DNA of 64,000 nt, from contig NZ_JAELXW010000035.1 in assembly GCF_016428645.1 (NCBI RefSeq), forward strand, positions 1 to 64,000, read 5' to 3'. The translations under genes and the position numbers were made by a program. Source of the DNA: Glycomyces salinus. GTDB lineage: Bacteria > Actinomycetota > Actinomycetes > Mycobacteriales > Micromonosporaceae. Numbering within the stretch: the stretch's first letter is position 1; each line of letters opens with the position of its first letter. The notes beneath the pieces were generated by a model. That model was given only the letters and a program-made list of their open reading frames with translations, was not told the origin of the DNA and made no database searches. This document shows positions 34,105 to 40,952 of the stretch, piece by piece.

Positions 34105-35106
34105 ATGGGACTCATCATGCGGGGCGGCGACATCGTTCGCCGGCTCGGCGTGCCCCGGCTCCTCCTCGGCGCCGCGCTCGGCGTGTTCGGCCTCCTGTTC
34201 TTGGGGGCCTGGGGCACGGCGACCGCGGCCTGGGCGCAAGACGAGACCGCCGAGGCGGAGGGCCTTGCCGCGTTGACCGATCCGCTCACCGCAGAGGTGT
34301 CCGACATGTCGCGCCTGGCCGCGCGACTCGTCCCGCACAACCAGTTGGGACAGGGGACATCCGCGGACGAGGGGACGGCTTCGGGGCTGGTGTCGGGCCT
34401 GACCGAACCGGTGGCCGAGTTGACCGCCGAGCCCGCGGAGATCGTGCCGCTGAGCGACGCCGCAGCCGGCCTAGTGAACGGCGAGTCTGTAGGAGACAGT
34501 GCCGCTGGAGTAGTGACACCGCTGGTAACCCTGGCCGACCGGACGGTTTCGGCCGCCCAGAGTCCGGCCGACGCGGTGTCCGGTGTCTATGAGACCGTCG
34601 CGCCCGCGACCGACGAGGTCGAAGTGGTGGCGCGGCTGGTGACCGATGGCCTCGGGACGTGGAGCGACGAGACGACGCCCGGGAGCGTCCTCGCCCACGG
34701 CCTAGGACAGCCGAGCTTCACCGCCCTCCAGACGGACACGGTCCCCACCGAAGTGGCGGCGGCACTCCCCGGAGTGCGAAACGACCGGTCGGCCGCCCAC
34801 TTCGAGTGCTCCGCCGCCGAAATCGGCGCGCGGGGGACCGACGAGCCGGAAGCGGCCGGGCGGTACGCGCCGGTCGACGGCGCCGCGCGGCATTGGCCCC
34901 CGAAGGGGCCGAAGCTGCCTGACCTGAACCTCATCCCCGGTGGAGCCACAGGCTCTTCCGCCGGTATCAGTGTGGACGGCGGACAATCCGCCGTCGACGT
35001 CTCCCCGTTCACGGCGGCCGAGCAGGTGTCGCTCGCCCGTGCACTGGCCGGGGAAGTGGGGCGGCCGTTGGACCGCACCGCCGAGCTGTCCGTCGCCCCT
35101 GACTAG
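34105..35106 (+). CDS. secreted alanine/valine-rich protein of unknown function
   Basis: The 333-residue protein starts at ATG 34105 behind GGAGGA. A signal peptide (basic MRGGDIVRRLG, hydrophobic LLLGAALGVFGLLFLGAW, cleavage near TATAAWAQ) directs export. The mature part is rich in Ala, Val, Gly and acidic residues, with short irregular repeats such as GLVSGLTEPVAELTAEP. It has a single Cys and no recognisable domain. Low-complexity secreted proteins like this occur beside surface-layer protein genes in mycelial actinomycetes (general knowledge). Its position just before the HWQICGQN-repeat genes suggests a shared cell-surface role, which is inference. Confidence 0.65.
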   Translation: MGLIMRGGDIVRRLGVPRLLLGAALGVFGLLFLGAWGTATAAWAQDETAEAEGLAALTDPLTAEVSDMSRLAARLVPHNQLGQGTSADEGTASGLVSGLTEPVAELTAEPAEIVPLSDAAAGLVNGESVGDSAAGVVTPLVTLADRTVSAAQSPADAVSGVYETVAPATDEVEVVARLVTDGLGTWSDETTPGSVLAHGLGQPSFTALQTDTVPTEVAAALPGVRNDRSAAHFECSAAEIGARGTDEPEAAGRYAPVDGAARHWPPKGPKLPDLNLIPGGATGSSAGISVDGGQSAVDVSPFTAAEQVSLARALAGEVGRPLDRTAELSVAPD

Positions 35107-35312
35107 AGCCTCCGCGCGTCGGCGCGGGGAACGCGGGCGCACAGCGCCCAGATCCCACCGGTTGCAGTGCCCGAGGCACGTCCTCGGCCATGCCCGAAGC
35201 GCCGGCGCGCGGCCGGGCCCACACCGGCCGGGCCTGTCAAGCCGGGCCGAATCAAGAGGAAATCCGCCCGAAACCCTCGGGCGCAAACAACCAGAAGGAA
35301 ACGATTCGCATC

Positions 35313-35693
35313 ATGCGCAAGGTTCTCACCGTCGCCGCTGCCGCCGCGGGCGTCGCCGCTCTCGGCGCCGCCTCCCCGGCCCTCGCCTCCGGCAACAACT
35401 CCGGCGTCACCGCCGGAGCGGTCAGCCTGCTCAACATCGACGCCTCCAGCGCGGCGCACTGGCAGATCTGCGGCCAGAACGTCTTCGCCCAGTCGTTCGA
35501 CCAGAACTGCGACAACCGCGACCACATCGGCCCCGGCCCGCAGTCGGGCGTGACCGCCGGTGACGTCTCCGGCGGCAACCTGGACATCTCGAGCGCGGCG
35601 CACTGGCAGATCTGCGGACAGAACATCGCCGTCTCGCCGTCGCTGAACCAGATGTGCAAGAACTACGACCACCTGTCCGAAGACGCGCAGTAA
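35313..35693 (+). CDS. secreted HWQICGQN-repeat protein, two repeats
   Basis: The 126-residue protein has a signal peptide (MRKVLTVAAAAAGVAALG, cleavage near ALAS). Two 48-residue repeats follow from residue 30. Each begins SGVTAG, runs through a V/L-rich strand (NIDASSAAHWQICGQN) and a second half (FAQSFDQNCDNRDH), and ends GPGPQ. The last unit is shortened and variant (IAVSPSLNQMCKNYDH). Each unit has two Cys about 17 residues apart, perhaps a disulfide. No domain family is recognised. The AAGGAA site lies 12 bases before ATG. It is first of four related neighbouring genes. Confidence 0.8.
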   Translation: MRKVLTVAAAAAGVAALGAASPALASGNNSGVTAGAVSLLNIDASSAAHWQICGQNVFAQSFDQNCDNRDHIGPGPQSGVTAGDVSGGNLDISSAAHWQICGQNIAVSPSLNQMCKNYDHLSEDAQ

Positions 35694-35703
35694 CGAACGC
35701 TAC

Positions 35704-35736
35704 GGGGGCGGGGCCGCCCTGACGGCTCCCGTCCCC
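35704..35736 (+). terminator. imperfect hairpin between the first two repeat-protein genes
   Basis: A GC-rich stem of about 13 pairs with one bulge and one G-U pair, directly after the stop at 35693. It may be a weak terminator or an mRNA stabiliser. Confidence 0.4.
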
Positions 35737-35762
35737 ACCATCGAATCAGAAACGGGGAATCC

Positions 35763-36431
35763 ATGAAGAAGGCAACTTCCGTCGCGTTCGCGGCCGCCGC
35801 CGGCGTCGCCGCCCTCGGCGCCGCCGCCGCTCCGGCCATGGCCGAGAGCTCGGGCGTCCAGGCCGGCGACCTGTCGCTGGTCAACATCGACGCCTCCCGC
35901 GCGGCGCACTGGCAGATCTGCGGCCAGAACGTCTGCGCCCAGTCGTTCAACCAGAACTGCGACAACCGCGACCACCTCGGCAAGGGCCCCCAGTCGGGCA
36001 TCGACGCCGGCGACCTGTCCCTGGGCAACCTGGACATCTCGGACGCGGCCCACTGGCAGATCTGCGGCCAGAACGTCTTCGCCCAGTCGTTCAACCAGAA
36101 CTGCGACAACCGCGACCACATCGGCAAGGGCCCCCAGTCGGGCATCGACGCCGGCGACCTGTCCCTGGGCAACCTGGACATCTCGGACGCGGCCCACTGG
36201 CAGATCTGCGGCCAGAACGTCTTCGCCCAGTCGTTCGACCAGAACTGCGACAACCGCGACCACATCGGCCAGGGCCCCCAGTCGGGCATCGACGCCGGCG
36301 ACCTGTCCCTGGGCAACCTGGACATCTCGGACGCGGCCCACTGGCAGATCTGCGGCCAGAACGTCGGCGTCGCGCCGTCGCTCGCCCAGCAGTGCCTCAA
36401 CTACGACCACATGCCCAACACCGCCCAGTAG
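35763..36431 (+). CDS. secreted HWQICGQN-repeat protein, four repeats
   Basis: The 222-residue protein has a signal peptide (MKKATSVAFAAAAGVAALG, cleavage near APAMAE). Four repeats of 48 residues start at residue 30. Repeats 2-4 share GDLSLGNLDISDAAHWQICG almost without change, also at the DNA level. The final unit diverges after the first half (VGVAPSLAQQCLNYDH), exactly as in the sister proteins. The repeat is acidic and Asn/Gln-rich with two Cys per unit. GGGGAA precedes the ATG. Regular alternation suggests a stacked beta-type fibre or solenoid; a structural role at the cell surface is inference. Confidence 0.82.
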   Translation: MKKATSVAFAAAAGVAALGAAAAPAMAESSGVQAGDLSLVNIDASRAAHWQICGQNVCAQSFNQNCDNRDHLGKGPQSGIDAGDLSLGNLDISDAAHWQICGQNVFAQSFNQNCDNRDHIGKGPQSGIDAGDLSLGNLDISDAAHWQICGQNVFAQSFDQNCDNRDHIGQGPQSGIDAGDLSLGNLDISDAAHWQICGQNVGVAPSLAQQCLNYDHMPNTAQ

Positions 36432-36439
36432 GCGGCCCG

Positions 36440-36470
36440 GGGCGGGCCGACCCGCGCGGACGGCCCGCCC
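36440..36470 (+). terminator. hairpin after the second repeat-protein gene
   Basis: A perfect 10-bp stem (GGGCGGGCCG, 36440-36449, with 36461-36470), nine bases past the stop codon. Confidence 0.55.
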
Positions 36471-36505
36471 ACGCACATTCATTCCAGAAGGGGACTAGAG
36501 GACTC

Positions 36506-37210
36506 ATGCACAAGACCACTGCCGCCGCCGCGCTCGCCGCGGCCGGCGTCGCCGCCCTCGGAGCAGCCGCTCCGGCCATGGCCCAGAACTCCGGCGTCCA
36601 GGCCGGCGACCTGTCGCTGGTCAACATCGACGCCTCGGACGCGCTGCACTGGCAGATCTGCGGCCAGAACGTCTTCGCCCACTCGTTCGACCAGAACTGC
36701 GACAACCGCGACCACATCGGCACCGGCCCCCAGTCGGGCATCGACGCCGGCGACCTGTCGCTGGTCAACATCGACGCCTCGGACGCGCTGCACTGGCAGA
36801 TCTGCGGCCAGAACGTCTTCGCCCAATCGTTCGACCAGAACTGCGACAACCGCGACCACATCGGCCCCGGCCCGCAGTCCGGCGTGACCGCCGGCGACGT
36901 CTCCGGCGGCAACCTGGACATCTCCAGCTTCGCCCACTGGCAGATCTGCGGCCAGAACGTCTTCGCCCACTCGTTCGACCAGAACTGCGACAACCGCGAC
37001 CACATCGGCCCCGGCCCGCAGTCCGGCGAGACCGCCGGCGACGTCTCCGGCGGTAACCTGGACATCTCCAGCTTCGCCCACTGGCAGATCTGCGGCCAGA
37101 ACGTGGCCGTGGCGCCGTCGCTGAACCAGATGTGCCAGAACCAGGACCACATCAACGAGCCCGGCAACGGGACCGTGCCGCCCAAGGGCGTCGACCAGGG
37201 CGACTACTGA
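36506..37210 (+). CDS. secreted HWQICGQN-repeat protein, four repeats with acidic tail
   Basis: The 234-residue protein has a signal peptide (MHKTTAAAALAAAGVAALG, cleavage near APAMAQ). Four 48-residue repeats start at residue 29. Units 1-2 resemble those of the second protein (DLSLVNIDASDALHWQICG), and units 3-4 resemble those of the first (DVSGGNLDISSFAHWQICG), as if the gene were assembled by exchange between its neighbours. The fourth unit again ends in the variant VAVAPSLNQMC. An extra hydrophilic tail (EPGNGTVPPKGVDQGDY) is unique to this member. GAGG lies upstream of the start. Confidence 0.82.
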   Translation: MHKTTAAAALAAAGVAALGAAAPAMAQNSGVQAGDLSLVNIDASDALHWQICGQNVFAHSFDQNCDNRDHIGTGPQSGIDAGDLSLVNIDASDALHWQICGQNVFAQSFDQNCDNRDHIGPGPQSGVTAGDVSGGNLDISSFAHWQICGQNVFAHSFDQNCDNRDHIGPGPQSGETAGDVSGGNLDISSFAHWQICGQNVAVAPSLNQMCQNQDHINEPGNGTVPPKGVDQGDY

Positions 37211-37250
37211 GACCGACGGGTTTCGGTCACGCACCGAAGGTAAACCAGTA

Positions 37251-37745
37251 ATGCGACACACGAAGATTCTCGCGGCCTCTGCCGCGGCCGCCGCCGCAGC
37301 GGTCATCCCGAGCGGAGCGGCCGCGGCCTCCACACCGGACTGGCTGACGCTCGCCAACATCGAGTCCGACCAGCCCTCGCTGCTGCCGATGGTGTGCGGC
37401 GAGGACGACTCCGGGACCGTGCTCGATCCGGCCTGCGAGGGCCTGCTCGGCACCGAGCAGGACCGGGCCGCGGCCGATCTCGGAGAGCAGCTGCCGGACG
37501 CACCCGGAGGATACGGCCGGACGCTGGCCAACGTCGACCTGCGCGACTTCGCCAAATGGCAGGTCTGCGGGATCGCGGTCGGCGCGACCGGTGAAGGCTA
37601 CGACTGCGACAACTCCATCACCGGAGAACGCGAGCCGGCTGGCCCCGGCGACGCGTACTCGCTGGTCAACGCCGACACCACCGGCTCCTTCGATTGGCGC
37701 GTCTGCGGCGTCTCCGCGTTCGAGGAGGCCAGCGGGTCCTGCTGA
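37251..37745 (+). CDS. degenerate relative of the HWQICGQN-repeat proteins, secreted
   Basis: The 164-residue protein has a signal peptide (MRHTKILAASAAAAAAAV, cleavage near AAAAS). Three spaced copies of a reduced core remain: TLANIESDQPSLLPMVCGED, TLANVDLRDFAKWQVCGIAV and SLVNADTTGSFDWRVCGVSA. All keep the Asn, the aromatic or hydrophobic position and the CG pair of the HWQICGQN core. The second Cys is present in each half (DPACEG, YDCDNS, SGSC). It lacks the NQNCDNRDH segment in exact form. It follows the third repeat gene by 40 bases, so it is probably coexpressed. Function is unknown. Confidence 0.75.
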   Translation: MRHTKILAASAAAAAAAVIPSGAAAASTPDWLTLANIESDQPSLLPMVCGEDDSGTVLDPACEGLLGTEQDRAAADLGEQLPDAPGGYGRTLANVDLRDFAKWQVCGIAVGATGEGYDCDNSITGEREPAGPGDAYSLVNADTTGSFDWRVCGVSAFEEASGSC

Positions 37746-37771
37746 CCCGAACGGTTTCCGTTCATACCCAA

Positions 37772-37801
37772 CGGCCGGGACCTCCCACGAGGTCCCGGCC
37801 G
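37772..37801. terminator. bidirectional terminator between convergent genes
   Basis: A perfect 13-bp stem (CGGCCGGGACCTC, 37772-37784, with 37789-37801) around CCAC, lying between the stop codons of the repeat-relative gene and the GH95 gene. Confidence 0.85.
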
Positions 37802-37810
37802 CCCCTGCGT

Positions 37811-40087
37811 CTACAGCCGCCACACCTCGCCGGCGCGCAGCGCCACCCGGTCGCCCGCGGGCCGATCCGGTTCGGCGACCCACACCTCGGTGTCGGCCGC
37901 GGCCTCCAGCTCCAGCCGCTCCAATTGCCCCTCGCGCCAGCTCAAGCGCTTGACGGTGACCGCCCCGCGGCAGCGCAGCCCCGACACCTCGCCGTCCGGC
38001 CAGGCCGCCGGCAGGGACGGCAGCGGCTCGATCAGCGGCACCCCCTCGAAGACCCGGTGCGACTGCACCAGCATCTCGGCGACCGCGGCCGTGGTGCCGA
38101 AGTTCCCGTCGATCTGGAACGGCGGGTGCGCGCACAGCAGCGAGGCGTACACCCCGCCGTCCGCGTACGTCGCCTCCGCGTCCCTGCGGCGGAAGCCCAC
38201 CGGCGTGAGGAACTCGCCCAGCAGCCGGTGCGCGCGGTCCCCGTCGCGCAGCCGCGCCCACAGCGCGGTCTTCCACGCCAGCGACCAGCCGGTGCCCGCG
38301 TCGCCGCGGACCTCCAGGGACCGCTCCGCGGCCTCGAGCAGCTCCGGCGAACCGGTCAGCGAATCACCGGGGAAGACCCCGTACAGGTGCGAGACGTGCC
38401 GGTGGTCGACCTCGGCCTCCTCGCGCTCGACCGCCCACTCCAAGATCCGGCCGTCCGAGCCGATCCTCACCTCCGACAGACGCGGCAGCGCCTCCTTGAC
38501 CTCGCTGACGACGGCCAGTTCGGGACCGTGGACGGTCTCGGCGACCACATCGGCGGCCTCCAGGACGAACTCGAACAGCTCGCGCACCAGCGTCGCGTCC
38601 ATGGCGGTGGTCTCGTCGGCAGCCGCGGTGCCCTCGGGCGTGACGAACTGGTTCTCCGGGCTCGTGGCCGGGCTGGTCACCAGGCGCCCGTCCGAGCCCT
38701 CCGAGAGCCGGTCGAGCACGAAACGGGCCGCGCCCAGCACGATCGGGAAGCGGTCGGCCAGGAACTCCTCGTCGCGGGAGAACCGCCAGTGCTCGGCCAG
38801 GTGCATGCACAGCCACACCCCGCCCATCGGCCAGTTCTGCCACTGCGTCTCGAAGTCGCACGGCGTGGTCAGCCGCCAGAAGTCGGTGTTGTGGTGGCAG
38901 CACCAGCCGCGCGCCCCGTAGAGGGCCCGGGCGGTCTCGACCCCGGACTCGGCCAGGTCGGACACCAGGTCGAACAGCGGCTCGCCGAACTCCGGCATCC
39001 CGCAGGTCTCGGCCGGCCAGTAGTTCATCTCGACGTTGATGTTGGTGGTGTAGTCGCAGCTCCACGGCGGCTGGACCTGGTCGTTCCAGATCCCCTGGAG
39101 GTTCGCCGGCTGCGTGCCCGGACGCGAGGACGCCGCCAGCAGGTAGCGGCCGAACTGGAAGGCCAGCACCGGCAGGTGCTCGTCGCCCTCCCCGGCCGCG
39201 CGCCGGTGCAGCCGCTCGTCGAGCGTCCCCTCCGGGGCCCGGCCGAGCCGCAGGTCCACCCGGTCCATGACCTCGCGGTGGGAGGCGACGTGCTCGTCCC
39301 GGATCGCCTCCCAGCCGGCCTCGGCCGCCCGGTCCGATTCGCGCTCCACATCCTCGGCCAGGCCGTCGAGGCCGGCACCGGAGCGCATCGCCACGAAGAC
39401 GGTGACCTCGCGGCAGCCGGAGAAGCGGTGCCCGTCCCCGGACCGGGCCAGGTCGCCGTCGCAGCGCAGCCGGGCCCGCATCGCCAGGGCCCGCACGCCC
39501 TCGGTCGTGGAGTAGTCCGGCTCGTCGATCGGGTTGCTCCGCGAGGGCAGCCCCGCCGGGGCGTGCCCGGTGAGGGCCAGCTCCTCGGCTCCCGCCCGGA
39601 GGGCGCCGCCCTCGTGCGGCCAGTCGAAGGCCAACGTCAGAGCGAACGGGTCGGCCGCGCTCCACCGCAGCGCGATCACCCCGTAGCGGACCGAGACCAC
39701 CGCTTCCATGGTGACCGGACCGCGGCGGACGGCCGCGGTGCCGTCGCGCAGGTCCAGTTCGCCGGAGACGAAGTCGTCGTCGCCGGTGTGGGAGAAACGC
39801 AGCGTCCCGGCAGGCTGGTACGCCTTGGTGCTCTCGCCCTGCATGGCCCGCAGCATCCGGTCGGCCGCGTGCAGCTCGCCGCGCCGTATCGCCTCGGCCG
39901 CTTCGGCGGCGACGGCGCCGACACCCTGGGGGACCTGCCAGTCGCCCGTGCCCGCCCAGAACCCGTCCTCGTTCAGGCCGATCTCTCGGTCGCCGATCAT
40001 CGCGCCGACGCGCCCGTTGCCCAACGGCATCCCCTCGTGCCAGGCCCGCGGGGGGCGGCGGGAGACCAGTTTCAGCTCTTCCGACAT
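37811..40087 (-). CDS. GH95-family glycoside hydrolase (alpha-L-fucosidase/galactosidase type)
   Basis: The 758-residue protein has the GH95 plan: an N-terminal beta-sandwich (WHEGMPLGNGRVGAMI), then an (alpha/alpha)6 barrel with RYLLAASSRPGTQPANLQGIWN. NINVEMNYWPAE supplies the Asn pair used in catalysis. SPENQF supplies the general acid Glu, and IDGNFG supplies the Asp near the C-terminal end. It inverts and releases alpha-1,2-linked L-fucose or L-galactose from plant glycans (family knowledge). No signal peptide is seen, so it probably works in the cytoplasm on imported oligosaccharides. It stands alone and is convergent with the repeat genes. Confidence 0.92.
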   Translation of the reverse strand: MSEELKLVSRRPPRAWHEGMPLGNGRVGAMIGDREIGLNEDGFWAGTGDWQVPQGVGAVAAEAAEAIRRGELHAADRMLRAMQGESTKAYQPAGTLRFSHTGDDDFVSGELDLRDGTAAVRRGPVTMEAVVSVRYGVIALRWSAADPFALTLAFDWPHEGGALRAGAEELALTGHAPAGLPSRSNPIDEPDYSTTEGVRALAMRARLRCDGDLARSGDGHRFSGCREVTVFVAMRSGAGLDGLAEDVERESDRAAEAGWEAIRDEHVASHREVMDRVDLRLGRAPEGTLDERLHRRAAGEGDEHLPVLAFQFGRYLLAASSRPGTQPANLQGIWNDQVQPPWSCDYTTNINVEMNYWPAETCGMPEFGEPLFDLVSDLAESGVETARALYGARGWCCHHNTDFWRLTTPCDFETQWQNWPMGGVWLCMHLAEHWRFSRDEEFLADRFPIVLGAARFVLDRLSEGSDGRLVTSPATSPENQFVTPEGTAAADETTAMDATLVRELFEFVLEAADVVAETVHGPELAVVSEVKEALPRLSEVRIGSDGRILEWAVEREEAEVDHRHVSHLYGVFPGDSLTGSPELLEAAERSLEVRGDAGTGWSLAWKTALWARLRDGDRAHRLLGEFLTPVGFRRRDAEATYADGGVYASLLCAHPPFQIDGNFGTTAAVAEMLVQSHRVFEGVPLIEPLPSLPAAWPDGEVSGLRCRGAVTVKRLSWREGQLERLELEAAADTEVWVAEPDRPAGDRVALRAGEVWRL

Positions 40088-40244: not shown

Positions 40245-40952
40245 GTGGAACTCAAGCAACACTTCACCAGGCTCGGCGCCCTGGCCGCGGCAGGAGCGGT
40301 CGGCACTGCGGCGGCTCTTGCCTTCGCGACTTCGGCGCAAGCTGCCGCCCAGACCATCGAGATCAACGACGGCAACGTCCCCACCACGGCCGGAGGCTAC
40401 GAAGACCAGTCTTGCGACCAGGTTCCCGGCGGTCCGCTGGACGGCCAGGACGGCTGGGTGTTCGTCCTCCCGGCGTCGGCCGGAGCCGAAGGCAACTTCA
40501 TTTCGGTCACCGCCACGTTCACCGACGGAGACGGCGCGGAGCAGATCCTCACCACCGATGGCGTCGACGGCGATGTGGTCGACGGCCAAGGCGACAACAA
40601 GGCCTACATCATCACCCCGGCCGGCTGGGAGCTCATCCACGCCGAAGCCGAAGTCGAGGACCCGAACGAAGGCGCCTTCTTCAATCTGACCCACGCCTGC
40701 CCGGGCGAGGAGCCCGACGACCAGACCACGCCTCCGGGCGACGAGACCACCACACCGGGCGAGGAGACCACCTCCCCCGGCGGTGACGAGACCAGCCCCG
40801 GCGAGACCTCGACCTCCCCGGCCGGCGGCGACACGCTGCCGACCACCGGTGCTCCGCTGACGATCGCGCTGGTCACGGCCGCCGCGCTCGCCGCCGCGGG
40901 CGCCGCGGTCTTCGTCCTGATGCACCGCCGCCGGGCCGCTCAAGACTGGTAG
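40245..40952 (+). CDS. sortase-anchored (LPXTG) surface protein
   Basis: The 235-residue protein has a signal peptide (to about residue 34, TSAQAAAQ). A beta-rich domain of about 115 residues has two Cys (CDQVP, HACPG). It is followed by a Thr/Pro/Gly/Glu-rich wall-spanning stretch with repeated TTPPGDE-like units, then LPTTG at 198-202, a hydrophobic helix and a basic tail (HRRRAAQDW). It should be cut by a class-E/F-type sortase and joined to peptidoglycan. No sortase gene lies nearby. The start is GTG 40245 behind GGAG. The role of the domain is unknown. Confidence 0.85.
   Translation: MELKQHFTRLGALAAAGAVGTAAALAFATSAQAAAQTIEINDGNVPTTAGGYEDQSCDQVPGGPLDGQDGWVFVLPASAGAEGNFISVTATFTDGDGAEQILTTDGVDGDVVDGQGDNKAYIITPAGWELIHAEAEVEDPNEGAFFNLTHACPGEEPDDQTTPPGDETTTPGEETTSPGGDETSPGETSTSPAGGDTLPTTGAPLTIALVTAAALAAAGAAVFVLMHRRRAAQDW

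What the first reader, a model, noticed from the sequence alone, without database searches (positions are those of the whole stretch)
35313..37210. New family of secreted proteins built from 48-residue HWQICGQN repeats
Three consecutive genes encode signal peptides followed only by these repeats (2, 4 and 4 units), each with two Cys and an Asn/Gln/Asp-rich half (NQNCDNRDH), always closed by a variant last unit. The regular period, secretion and Asn/Gln content suggest a self-assembling surface layer or fibre, functionally comparable to rodlins/chaplins but not matching their sequence by eye.
Basis: partly seen in the sequence, partly recalled or inferred. Interest (0 to 1): 0.85.

Follow-up and report, generated by a model that had tools for sequence, protein, structure and literature searches.

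The report
New secreted repeat-protein operon in Glycomyces
A soil actinobacterium and its relatives carry a small cluster of secreted proteins built from a 48-residue repeat that no protein library searched recognises, preceded by an elaborately folded RNA; it may be part of the coat of the aerial filaments or spores, but this has not been tested.

Summary
Genes at 35313-35693, 35763-36431 and 36506-37210 (+) encode a signal-peptide-like stretch plus 2, 4 and 4 units of 48 residues.

No Pfam, NCBIfam or PDB match reaches a cut-off. The family occurs in 21 of 22 genomes of the genus, Glycomyces, and in 25 of 200 of the GTDB family; class-wide draws of 394 and 296 genomes gave no convincing match beyond the window's own. 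Library tests for chaplin and rodlin fail, with working positive controls. Composition is rodlin-like. All 22 genus genomes have chaplins; the rodlin model hit one genus of 91, not this one.

The leader folds into a three-way junction plus two hairpins in 21 of 21 Glycomyces genomes examined (mean z -4.35; coding control -0.80), with compensatory changes and no Rfam match. Its model hits once per genome in 21 of 200 genomes, each time beside this cluster.

A rodlin-like surface role is inference, about 0.4.

The parts
34105..35106 (+). upstream partner gene: predicted exported protein, 333 aa, N-terminal RR plus hydrophobic stretch, ends in ...APD
   Evidence: present in 20 of 20 Glycomyces loci that extend this far; R12 R13 and C-terminal APD invariant in 8 of 8 aligned, including two other genera at 28-29% identity; export, possibly by Tat, is inference
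35112..35212 (+). leader RNA, domain P1-P3: long-range stem P1 (arms 35112-35125 / 35199-35212) enclosing hairpins P2 and P3
   Evidence: covariance model hits here and once per genome in 21 of 22 same-genus genomes
35213..35264 (+). leader RNA, hairpin P4 region (exact pairs ambiguous in the window, clearer in relatives)
   Evidence: pairs with changes on both sides in helices 3 and 4
35265..35283 (+). leader RNA, hairpin P5 (CGCCCG...CGGGCG) about 10 nt upstream of the ribosome-binding site
   Evidence: 20 of 21 Glycomyces leaders by the regular expression; the 21st (L101) also folds a hairpin there; helix 5
35293..35299 (+). likely ribosome-binding site AGAAGGA of gene 1
   Evidence: AGAAGGAA invariant in 20 of 20 aligned leaders
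35313..35693 (+). gene 1: signal peptide + 2 units of the 48-residue repeat
35763..36431 (+). gene 2: signal peptide + 4 units; units 2 and 3 are 98% identical in DNA (recent duplication or conversion)
36506..37210 (+). gene 3: signal peptide + 4 units + tail with KGxDQGDY
   Evidence: tail KGxDQGDx in 20 proteins of relatives
37251..37745 (+). gene 4: divergent paralogue, signal peptide + Cys-pair units (two recognisable by sequence, a third by Cys spacing), few Asn/Gln
   Evidence: E 2.5e-8 to gene 3; 6 Cys in 16 of 16 relatives counted (one contig- or frame-cut row, L097, dropped)

Best explanation
A lineage-specific operon for an extracellular coat of the mycelium or spores. Genes 1-3 are exported and processed; each 48-residue module is closed by one disulphide (inferred from two Cys per unit), and modules are strung as internal units plus a distinct terminal unit or a KGxDQGDY tail. 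The Asn/Gln/Asp-rich, acidic, mildly hydrophilic chains would assemble at the hyphal surface next to the chaplins that every family-bearing genome tested has, filling the place that rodlins fill in Streptomyces. Gene 4 and the upstream protein are accessories. The folded leader between the upstream gene and gene 1 would protect or process the message, so that the structural proteins are made in excess over the upstream partner. Shown here: gene content, conservation, synteny, sequence architecture, leader structure. Inferred: export, disulphides, assembly, surface location, developmental role, leader function.
For: Signal-peptide-like N-termini and no LPXTG/LAXTG motif in the four window proteins. 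Cys count equals twice the unit count in 61 of 61 uncut relatives. Positional rule of internal versus terminal units. Composition of mature core proteins: Asn+Gln 17.6%, GRAVY -0.35, pI 4.3; twelve rodlins in the same script: 18.3%, -0.19, 4.3. All 22 same-genus genomes and the four genomes of other genera with the family have PF03777 chaplins, but the rodlin model finds nothing in the window's genome and hits one genus of 91; a review says obvious rodlins are found only in streptomycetes (PMC4255298, passage). Conserved block of partner, leader and genes 1 to 4. Intercistronic structured leader with covariation.
Against: No expression, localisation or biochemical data. AlphaFold models are unusable, so no assembly interface can be named. 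Sequence comparison with chaplins and rodlins gives at best a faint signal near shuffled controls. The chaplin gene lies on another contig (C79, not C141), whereas chaplin units lie inside at least 16 of the 30 short loci fetched for rodlins. One same-genus genome, G160 (3.3 Mb, 360 contigs, 92% complete), has chaplins but neither family nor leader. 175 of 200 genomes of the GTDB family lack the genes; how many of those form aerial hyphae was not tested. G014 keeps the partner without the repeat genes, G013 the repeats without the partner.
Confidence: 0.4

Rival explanations
1. A general extracellular matrix or adhesion protein set (biofilm, pellet formation, attachment to surfaces) without a special role in aerial development.
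For: Same facts: secreted-looking, repetitive, Cys-paired, no anchor motif. Nothing in the calls ties the genes to aerial growth. Some chaplins also act in attachment (PMC4255298, passage).
Against: Genus-wide conservation of the whole block with a dedicated leader suggests a specific role; still compatible.
Confidence: 0.25
2. The units are extremely diverged chaplin domains: both show G-V-x-x-G ... V/I-C-G-x-x-V ... C-x-N.
For: hhalign pairs the C-G...C cores in register; gene-4-type units against Glycomyces-type chaplins score 21.4, with 0 of 150 column permutations and 2 of 150 CG-preserving permutations as high; core units against Streptomyces-type chaplins 2 and 0 of 150. In the gene-4 HMM search 10 of the 14 best targets were chaplins although 2415 of 2530 targets were decoys; the chaplins are not independent of each other.
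Against: hhalign probabilities run from 0.9 to 46%; across the 12 chaplin tests permutations as high range from 0 to 45 of 150; best chaplin bit score 10.8 versus 10.2 for the best decoy; no PF03777 match in the window proteins; opposite hydropathy.
Confidence: 0.12
3. Secreted ligand- or metal-binding, inhibitory or antimicrobial proteins: His-Trp..Cys and Cys-Asp-Asn..Asp-His could bind a metal or sugar.
For: His before the Trp in 128 of 155 units; Asp and Asn after the second Cys position in about two thirds.
Against: His is replaced by Lys, Gln or others in gene 4 and in several species, so only the Cys pair is general. No immunity or resistance gene was seen among the eleven neighbours traced.
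Confidence: 0.13
4. The leader is only a strong transcription terminator of the upstream gene plus a separate promoter region of gene 1, with no regulatory role.
For: P1 starts about 5 nt after the stop codon of the upstream gene; GC-rich actinobacteria often use hairpins without U-tracts (recalled).
Against: A three-way junction plus two further hairpins kept in 21 of 21 genomes up to the ribosome-binding site is more than a terminator needs.
Confidence: 0.3

Closest known systems
Rodlins RdlA/RdlB (NCBIfam NF041022)
   Same: Small secreted proteins of actinomycetes, several paralogues, Asn/Gln about 18%, pI about 4.3, slightly negative GRAVY; occur in genomes that also have chaplins
   Different: No match to NF041022, with a working positive control; rodlins are single non-repeated domains with about 2 Cys and almost no Trp, these are tandem 48-residue modules with 2 Cys and, in nearly all, one Trp each; not beside the chaplin gene
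Chaplins (Pfam PF03777, ChpA-C)
   Same: Secreted domains of 40-50 residues with a C-G ... C pair and often Asn near the second Cys; some proteins carry several domains, as the four-domain one of this genome
   Different: No PF03777 match (control 3.1e-28); chaplin domains are hydrophobic (GRAVY +0.29 and +0.45), these are not; profile comparison mostly within shuffled controls
Structured leader RNAs and intercistronic stabilising hairpins (general kind, recalled)
   Same: Conserved stems between two co-directional genes, ahead of the ribosome-binding site
   Different: No Rfam family matches; found in one genus and at one locus in the 200 genomes searched

Membership tests
Chaplin (PF03777) | Match to the PF03777 profile over its cut-off | tested here: not met
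   Six window proteins scanned at E up to 10: no PF03777 hit; positive control, the chaplin of the same genome, hits at 3.1e-28
Chaplin (PF03777) | Hydrophobic domain | tested here: not met
   GRAVY -0.35 for core mature proteins versus +0.45 and +0.29 for chaplin domains
Chaplin (PF03777) | Two Cys per domain in C-G ... C arrangement | tested here: met
   C-G and second C of both units invariant in 34 of 34 aligned proteins; Cys = 2 x units in 61 of 61 uncut relatives; gene 2 of the window has one extra Cys
Chaplin (PF03777) | Amyloid fibres and surface activity | not testable with these tools
   needs purified protein
Rodlin (NF041022) | Match to the rodlin_AB profile over its cut-off | tested here: not met
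   No hit at E up to 10 for the window proteins; a recalled RdlB sequence hits at 1.3e-51; no match in the window's genome. One relative, L025, hits at E 0.32 and 11 bits over residues 1-30, its signal peptide
Rodlin (NF041022) | Profile similarity outside the signal peptide | tested here: inconclusive
   Whole proteins: hhalign 72% but only over the signal peptides. Units against mature rodlins: 2, 6 and 7 of 150 permutations as high; best HMM score 9.8 against 9.4 for decoys
Rodlin (NF041022) | Composition of the mature protein | tested here: met
   Asn+Gln, pI and GRAVY close to 12 rodlins; this is analogy, not homology
Rodlin (NF041022) | Genes next to chaplin genes | tested here: not met
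   Chaplin gene on contig C79, this cluster on C141; chaplin units lie inside at least 16 of 30 loci fetched for rodlins
Rodlin (NF041022) | Needed for the rodlet layer on aerial hyphae | not testable with these tools
   needs mutants and electron microscopy
Known structured RNA families (Rfam 15) | Match to any family | tested here: not met
   0 matches in window 34900-37900 at E up to 0.1 and 0 at gathering cut-offs in four of the relatives' loci

The most novel reading that the evidence does not exclude
Glycomyces built its own aerial-coat system: a modular, disulphide-stapled fibre protein with internal and cap units that takes the place of rodlins alongside ordinary chaplins, delivered with a dedicated partner protein and set in abundance by a previously undescribed three-way-junction leader RNA found once per genome and only at this locus.
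Probability: 0.3. Interest if true: 0.8.

Novelty: new variant of a known kind. Interest (0 to 1): 0.58.

Why it matters
A review found obvious rodlins only in streptomycetes (PMC4255298, passage), yet other genera raise aerial filaments. A conserved, secreted, repeat-built protein set in a chaplin-bearing genus in whose sampled genome no rodlin was found is a concrete candidate for how another lineage textures or stiffens its surface, and a natural modular building block for materials work. The leader is a second, independent finding: a covarying RNA structure tied to one operon, useful for asking how a bacterium sets the ratio between neighbouring genes.

Tried and rejected
Chaplin or rodlin homology: profile-profile comparison, permutation controls and HMM searches with decoys gave a faint shared C-G...C pattern but no clear separation from shuffles; not claimed. 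Of the 72 of 300 genomes matched, those outside the genus and the four other genera have E of 5.1e-4 or worse; I did not read them one by one. Of the 19 non-own genomes I read eight places, which look like chance. The own-genome hits include units that were rows of the profile and prove nothing. AlphaFold on genes 1 and 3: unusable, so no fold search was run. Operator hypothesis for the inverted repeat upstream of gene 1: set aside in favour of RNA, because the exact pair occurs once per genome in 18 of 22 genomes, arms change in compensation in single sequences, and the leader folds better than shuffles. Results against or limiting the RNA reading: three A-C and two U-U mismatches inside P1; 12 of 21 loci also match the model, always more weakly, on the minus strand because P1 is nearly symmetrical, so the strand rests on gene orientation and the higher plus-strand scores; for two of 21 leaders one of 60 shuffles folded as well, and 8 of 42 coding controls had z below -2 (lowest -3.8); the number of further pair types was reached by 11 of 500 shuffles, and the structure came from the same alignment. 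A check on the CM alignment gave 94.2% pairing against 90.7% in shuffles. Plasmid and phage collections: no match. Literature: no paper held contains the string HWQICGQN; the rows listed for Glycomyces with aerial, chaplin, spore surface, rodlet or RNA terms showed nothing on this cluster (listings only). The search for rodlins beyond Streptomyces added nothing to the review already named (listing).
Full report
WHAT IS THERE. Three adjacent plus-strand genes, 35313-35693, 35763-36431 and 36506-37210, encode N-terminal signal-peptide-like stretches followed by 2, 4 and 4 copies of a 48-residue unit. DNA repeats inside a gene are spaced 144 nt apart. Unit core: S-L-V-N-x-D-x-S-x-A-x-H-W-Q-I-C-G-Q-N-V, then 8-10 variable residues, then C-D-N-R-D-H. 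In an alignment of 34 proteins the W-Q-x-C-G and the second Cys of both units are invariant. The unit counts (155 of 180 units, those of full length) were made with a pattern that itself asks for the first Cys, so its '155 of 155' for that Cys is by construction. The third gene also has a C-terminal tail with KGVDQGDY. A fourth gene at 37251-37745 is a divergent paralogue (E 2.5e-8): its units read FAKWQVCG...CDN and FDWRVCG...C, and 16 of 16 relatives counted have exactly six Cys (one cut row dropped).

HOW FAR IT GOES. The window lies in a 5.37-Mb assembly in 211 contigs. Named relatives are almost all Glycomyces: 24 loci, 22 of them Glycomyces, one Actinorhabdospora filicis, one Phytomonospora endophytica. 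In whole genomes, 25 of 200 of the same GTDB family match: 21 of 22 of the genus plus one genome in each of four other genera. The exception in the genus, G160, is a 3.3-Mb, 360-contig, 92% complete genome, so absence is not certain. Class-wide, the two-unit profile found only the window's own genome among 394, and a looser one-unit profile found nothing convincing outside it among 296 (19 other genomes at E 0.001-0.05; eight places read). The first-look candidates were only partly scored in these searches and the draws held no other Glycomyces, so very weak relatives may be missed. The most distant clear relative, G062, has a gene with two degenerate units that lack the Trp. Pfam, NCBIfam and PDB give no match over a cut-off and none that looks relevant at E up to 10; the best NCBIfam line is a flagellar FlgG model at E 0.0024, 17 bits against a cut-off of 350, which I treat as chance.

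ARCHITECTURE RULES. In relatives the usual number of units is two (genes 1 and 2) or two to three (gene 3); four units in the window's genes 2 and 3 is a local expansion, and gene 2 units 2 and 3 are 98% identical in DNA. In 62 proteins, 71 of 71 non-last units are of the internal type. 47 of 62 last units are of the terminal type (V-x-P-S-L...Q-C-x-N); of the other 15, nine are followed by the KGxDQGDx tail and one is cut by a contig end. The classes were set by my own regular expression after reading the sequences. Cys number is exactly two per unit in 61 of 61 uncut relatives, which suggests one disulphide per module; the window's gene 2 breaks this with one extra Cys. dN/dS is below 1 in all ten comparisons made.

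NEIGHBOURS. In Glycomyces the block is glutamine synthetase (minus), partner gene (plus), repeat genes and gene 4 (plus), a GH95-like gene (minus), usually one to three stretches like the LPXTG-type surface protein (plus; none found in L081), an NCS2-type permease (plus). The glutamine synthetase, GH95 and NCS2 names are mine from reading the translations; LPXTG rests on a Pfam hit. The partner gene is found in 20 of 20 Glycomyces loci that extend to it, glutamine synthetase in 19 of 20, and the GH95-like gene in 20 of 20. The partner also stands in the same place in Actinorhabdospora and Phytomonospora at 28-29% identity, with invariant R12 R13 and the ending APD. In a 150-genome search it was found in 20 (one of them, G041, weak at 1.9e-4), including G014, which has the partner but no repeat genes. 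G013 has repeat genes with the permease nearby but no partner. So the partner is the usual, not an obligatory, companion.

THE LEADER RNA. The about 200 nt between the partner's stop codon and gene 1 hold an inverted repeat CCGCGCGTCG ... CGACGCGCGG. The exact pair occurs once per genome in 18 of 22 same-genus genomes; the other four are the window's own genome and G099 (variant second arm), G151 (both arms changed in step, CGCATCG with CGATGCG) and G160 (none). Free folding of the Glycomyces leaders, read by eye, gives the same plan in all 21 (the window and 20 named genomes; two loci, L090 and L096, do not reach the leader): stem P1 closing a three-way junction with hairpins P2 and P3, then P4, then P5 about 10 nt before the ribosome-binding site. 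z-scores run from -2.8 to -6.1 (mean -4.35), against -0.80 on average in 42 coding stretches of the upstream gene, 8 of which were also below -2 (lowest -3.8). The dedicated tool gives -3.5 for the window, -5.1 and -5.2 for two relatives, with 0 of 200 shuffles as stable. On a sequence-only alignment, 95.7% of cells pair (93.6% in shuffles), 9 pairs have changes on both sides against 2.8 expected, and 0 of 500 shuffles reach these values or the covariation score; the count of further pair types was reached by 11 of 500. Sliding the partner by 1-3 columns drops pairing to 31-51%. That structure was taken from the same alignment, which favours it. A covariance model of P1-P3 built from 13 genomes finds one copy per genome in 21 of 200 genomes of the GTDB family, each at this locus, including 8 genomes not used to build it, and none in the other 179, with the stricter search filters. 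The seed and non-seed leaders share the P1 sequence, so sequence as well as structure carries those hits. Rfam has no match. In Actinorhabdospora and Phytomonospora the intergenic region is shorter and not specially structured (z -0.9, -1.3).

WHAT IT IS NOT, BY TEST. Chaplin: fails PF03777 and hydropathy, meets the Cys arrangement. Rodlin: fails NF041022, gene neighbourhood and domain plan, meets composition. Both library tests had positive controls. Profile-profile comparison puts the C-G...C cores of unit and chaplin in register; across 12 tests 0 to 45 of 150 permutations score as high, lowest for gene-4-type units against Glycomyces-type chaplins and for core units against Streptomyces-type ones. 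Against mature rodlins 2, 6 and 7 of 150 do, and a 72% whole-protein hhalign match lies in the signal peptides only. HMM scores of chaplins (10.8) and rodlins (9.8) barely exceed the best decoys of the same searches (10.2, 9.4). A common origin with chaplins is possible, not shown.

HOW IT LIKELY WORKS. Composition is the strongest functional hint: core mature proteins have Asn+Gln 17.6%, pI 4.3, GRAVY -0.35; twelve rodlins 18.3%, 4.3, -0.19; chaplin domains GRAVY +0.29 and +0.45 (with a crude signal-peptide rule that cuts the window's gene 1 too far in). All 22 same-genus genomes and the four genomes of other genera with the family have chaplin domains, as do the four rodlin-bearing genomes added as reference (30 of 30), while the rodlin model hit 13 of 197 genomes, all in one genus of 91, and not the window's genome. 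A review reports obvious rodlins only in streptomycetes, with very low-scoring hits in two other genera, one of them Stackebrandtia (PMC4255298, passages). The paper on RdlB states that both rodlins are indispensable for rodlets and that RdlB readily forms amyloid (PMC5314377, passages). Natronoglycomyces, of the same family as Glycomyces, forms aerial hyphae and short spore chains (PMC8289206, passages), and Stackebrandtia forms aerial mycelium on some media without sporulating (PMC3035245, passages). From this I infer that the proteins are rodlin-like partners of chaplins on aerial surfaces, at about 0.4; a general matrix or adhesion role is the main rival. Nothing here shows assembly, and both structure predictions failed.

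VERDICT. The family is new to the public libraries searched and narrow in range. The cluster is larger than reported, with a partner gene, a fourth paralogue and a well-supported structured leader RNA. I file it as a new variant of a known kind (actinomycete surface proteins), because how it works is inferred by analogy. On checking against the calls I corrected several counts and disclosures; the odds did not change.

Noticed in passing
35112-35283 (+): Intergenic leader that folds into a three-way junction plus two hairpins in 21 of 21 Glycomyces genomes examined, without an Rfam match; its model hits one copy per genome, at this locus, in 21 of 200 genomes.
   Followed up: yes
   Followed up: partly
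40245-40952 (+): LPXTG-type secreted surface protein; one to three similar stretches lie at the same place in most Glycomyces loci.
   Followed up: no
35763-36431 (+): Gene 2 unit 1 has a third Cys (VCAQSF), giving an odd number of Cys in this protein; units 2 and 3 are 98% identical in DNA.
   Followed up: no
genome G000, contig C79 125025-125651: The four chaplin domains of this genome over the cut-off lie in one open frame, on a contig other than the window's.
   Followed up: partly
   Followed up: partly
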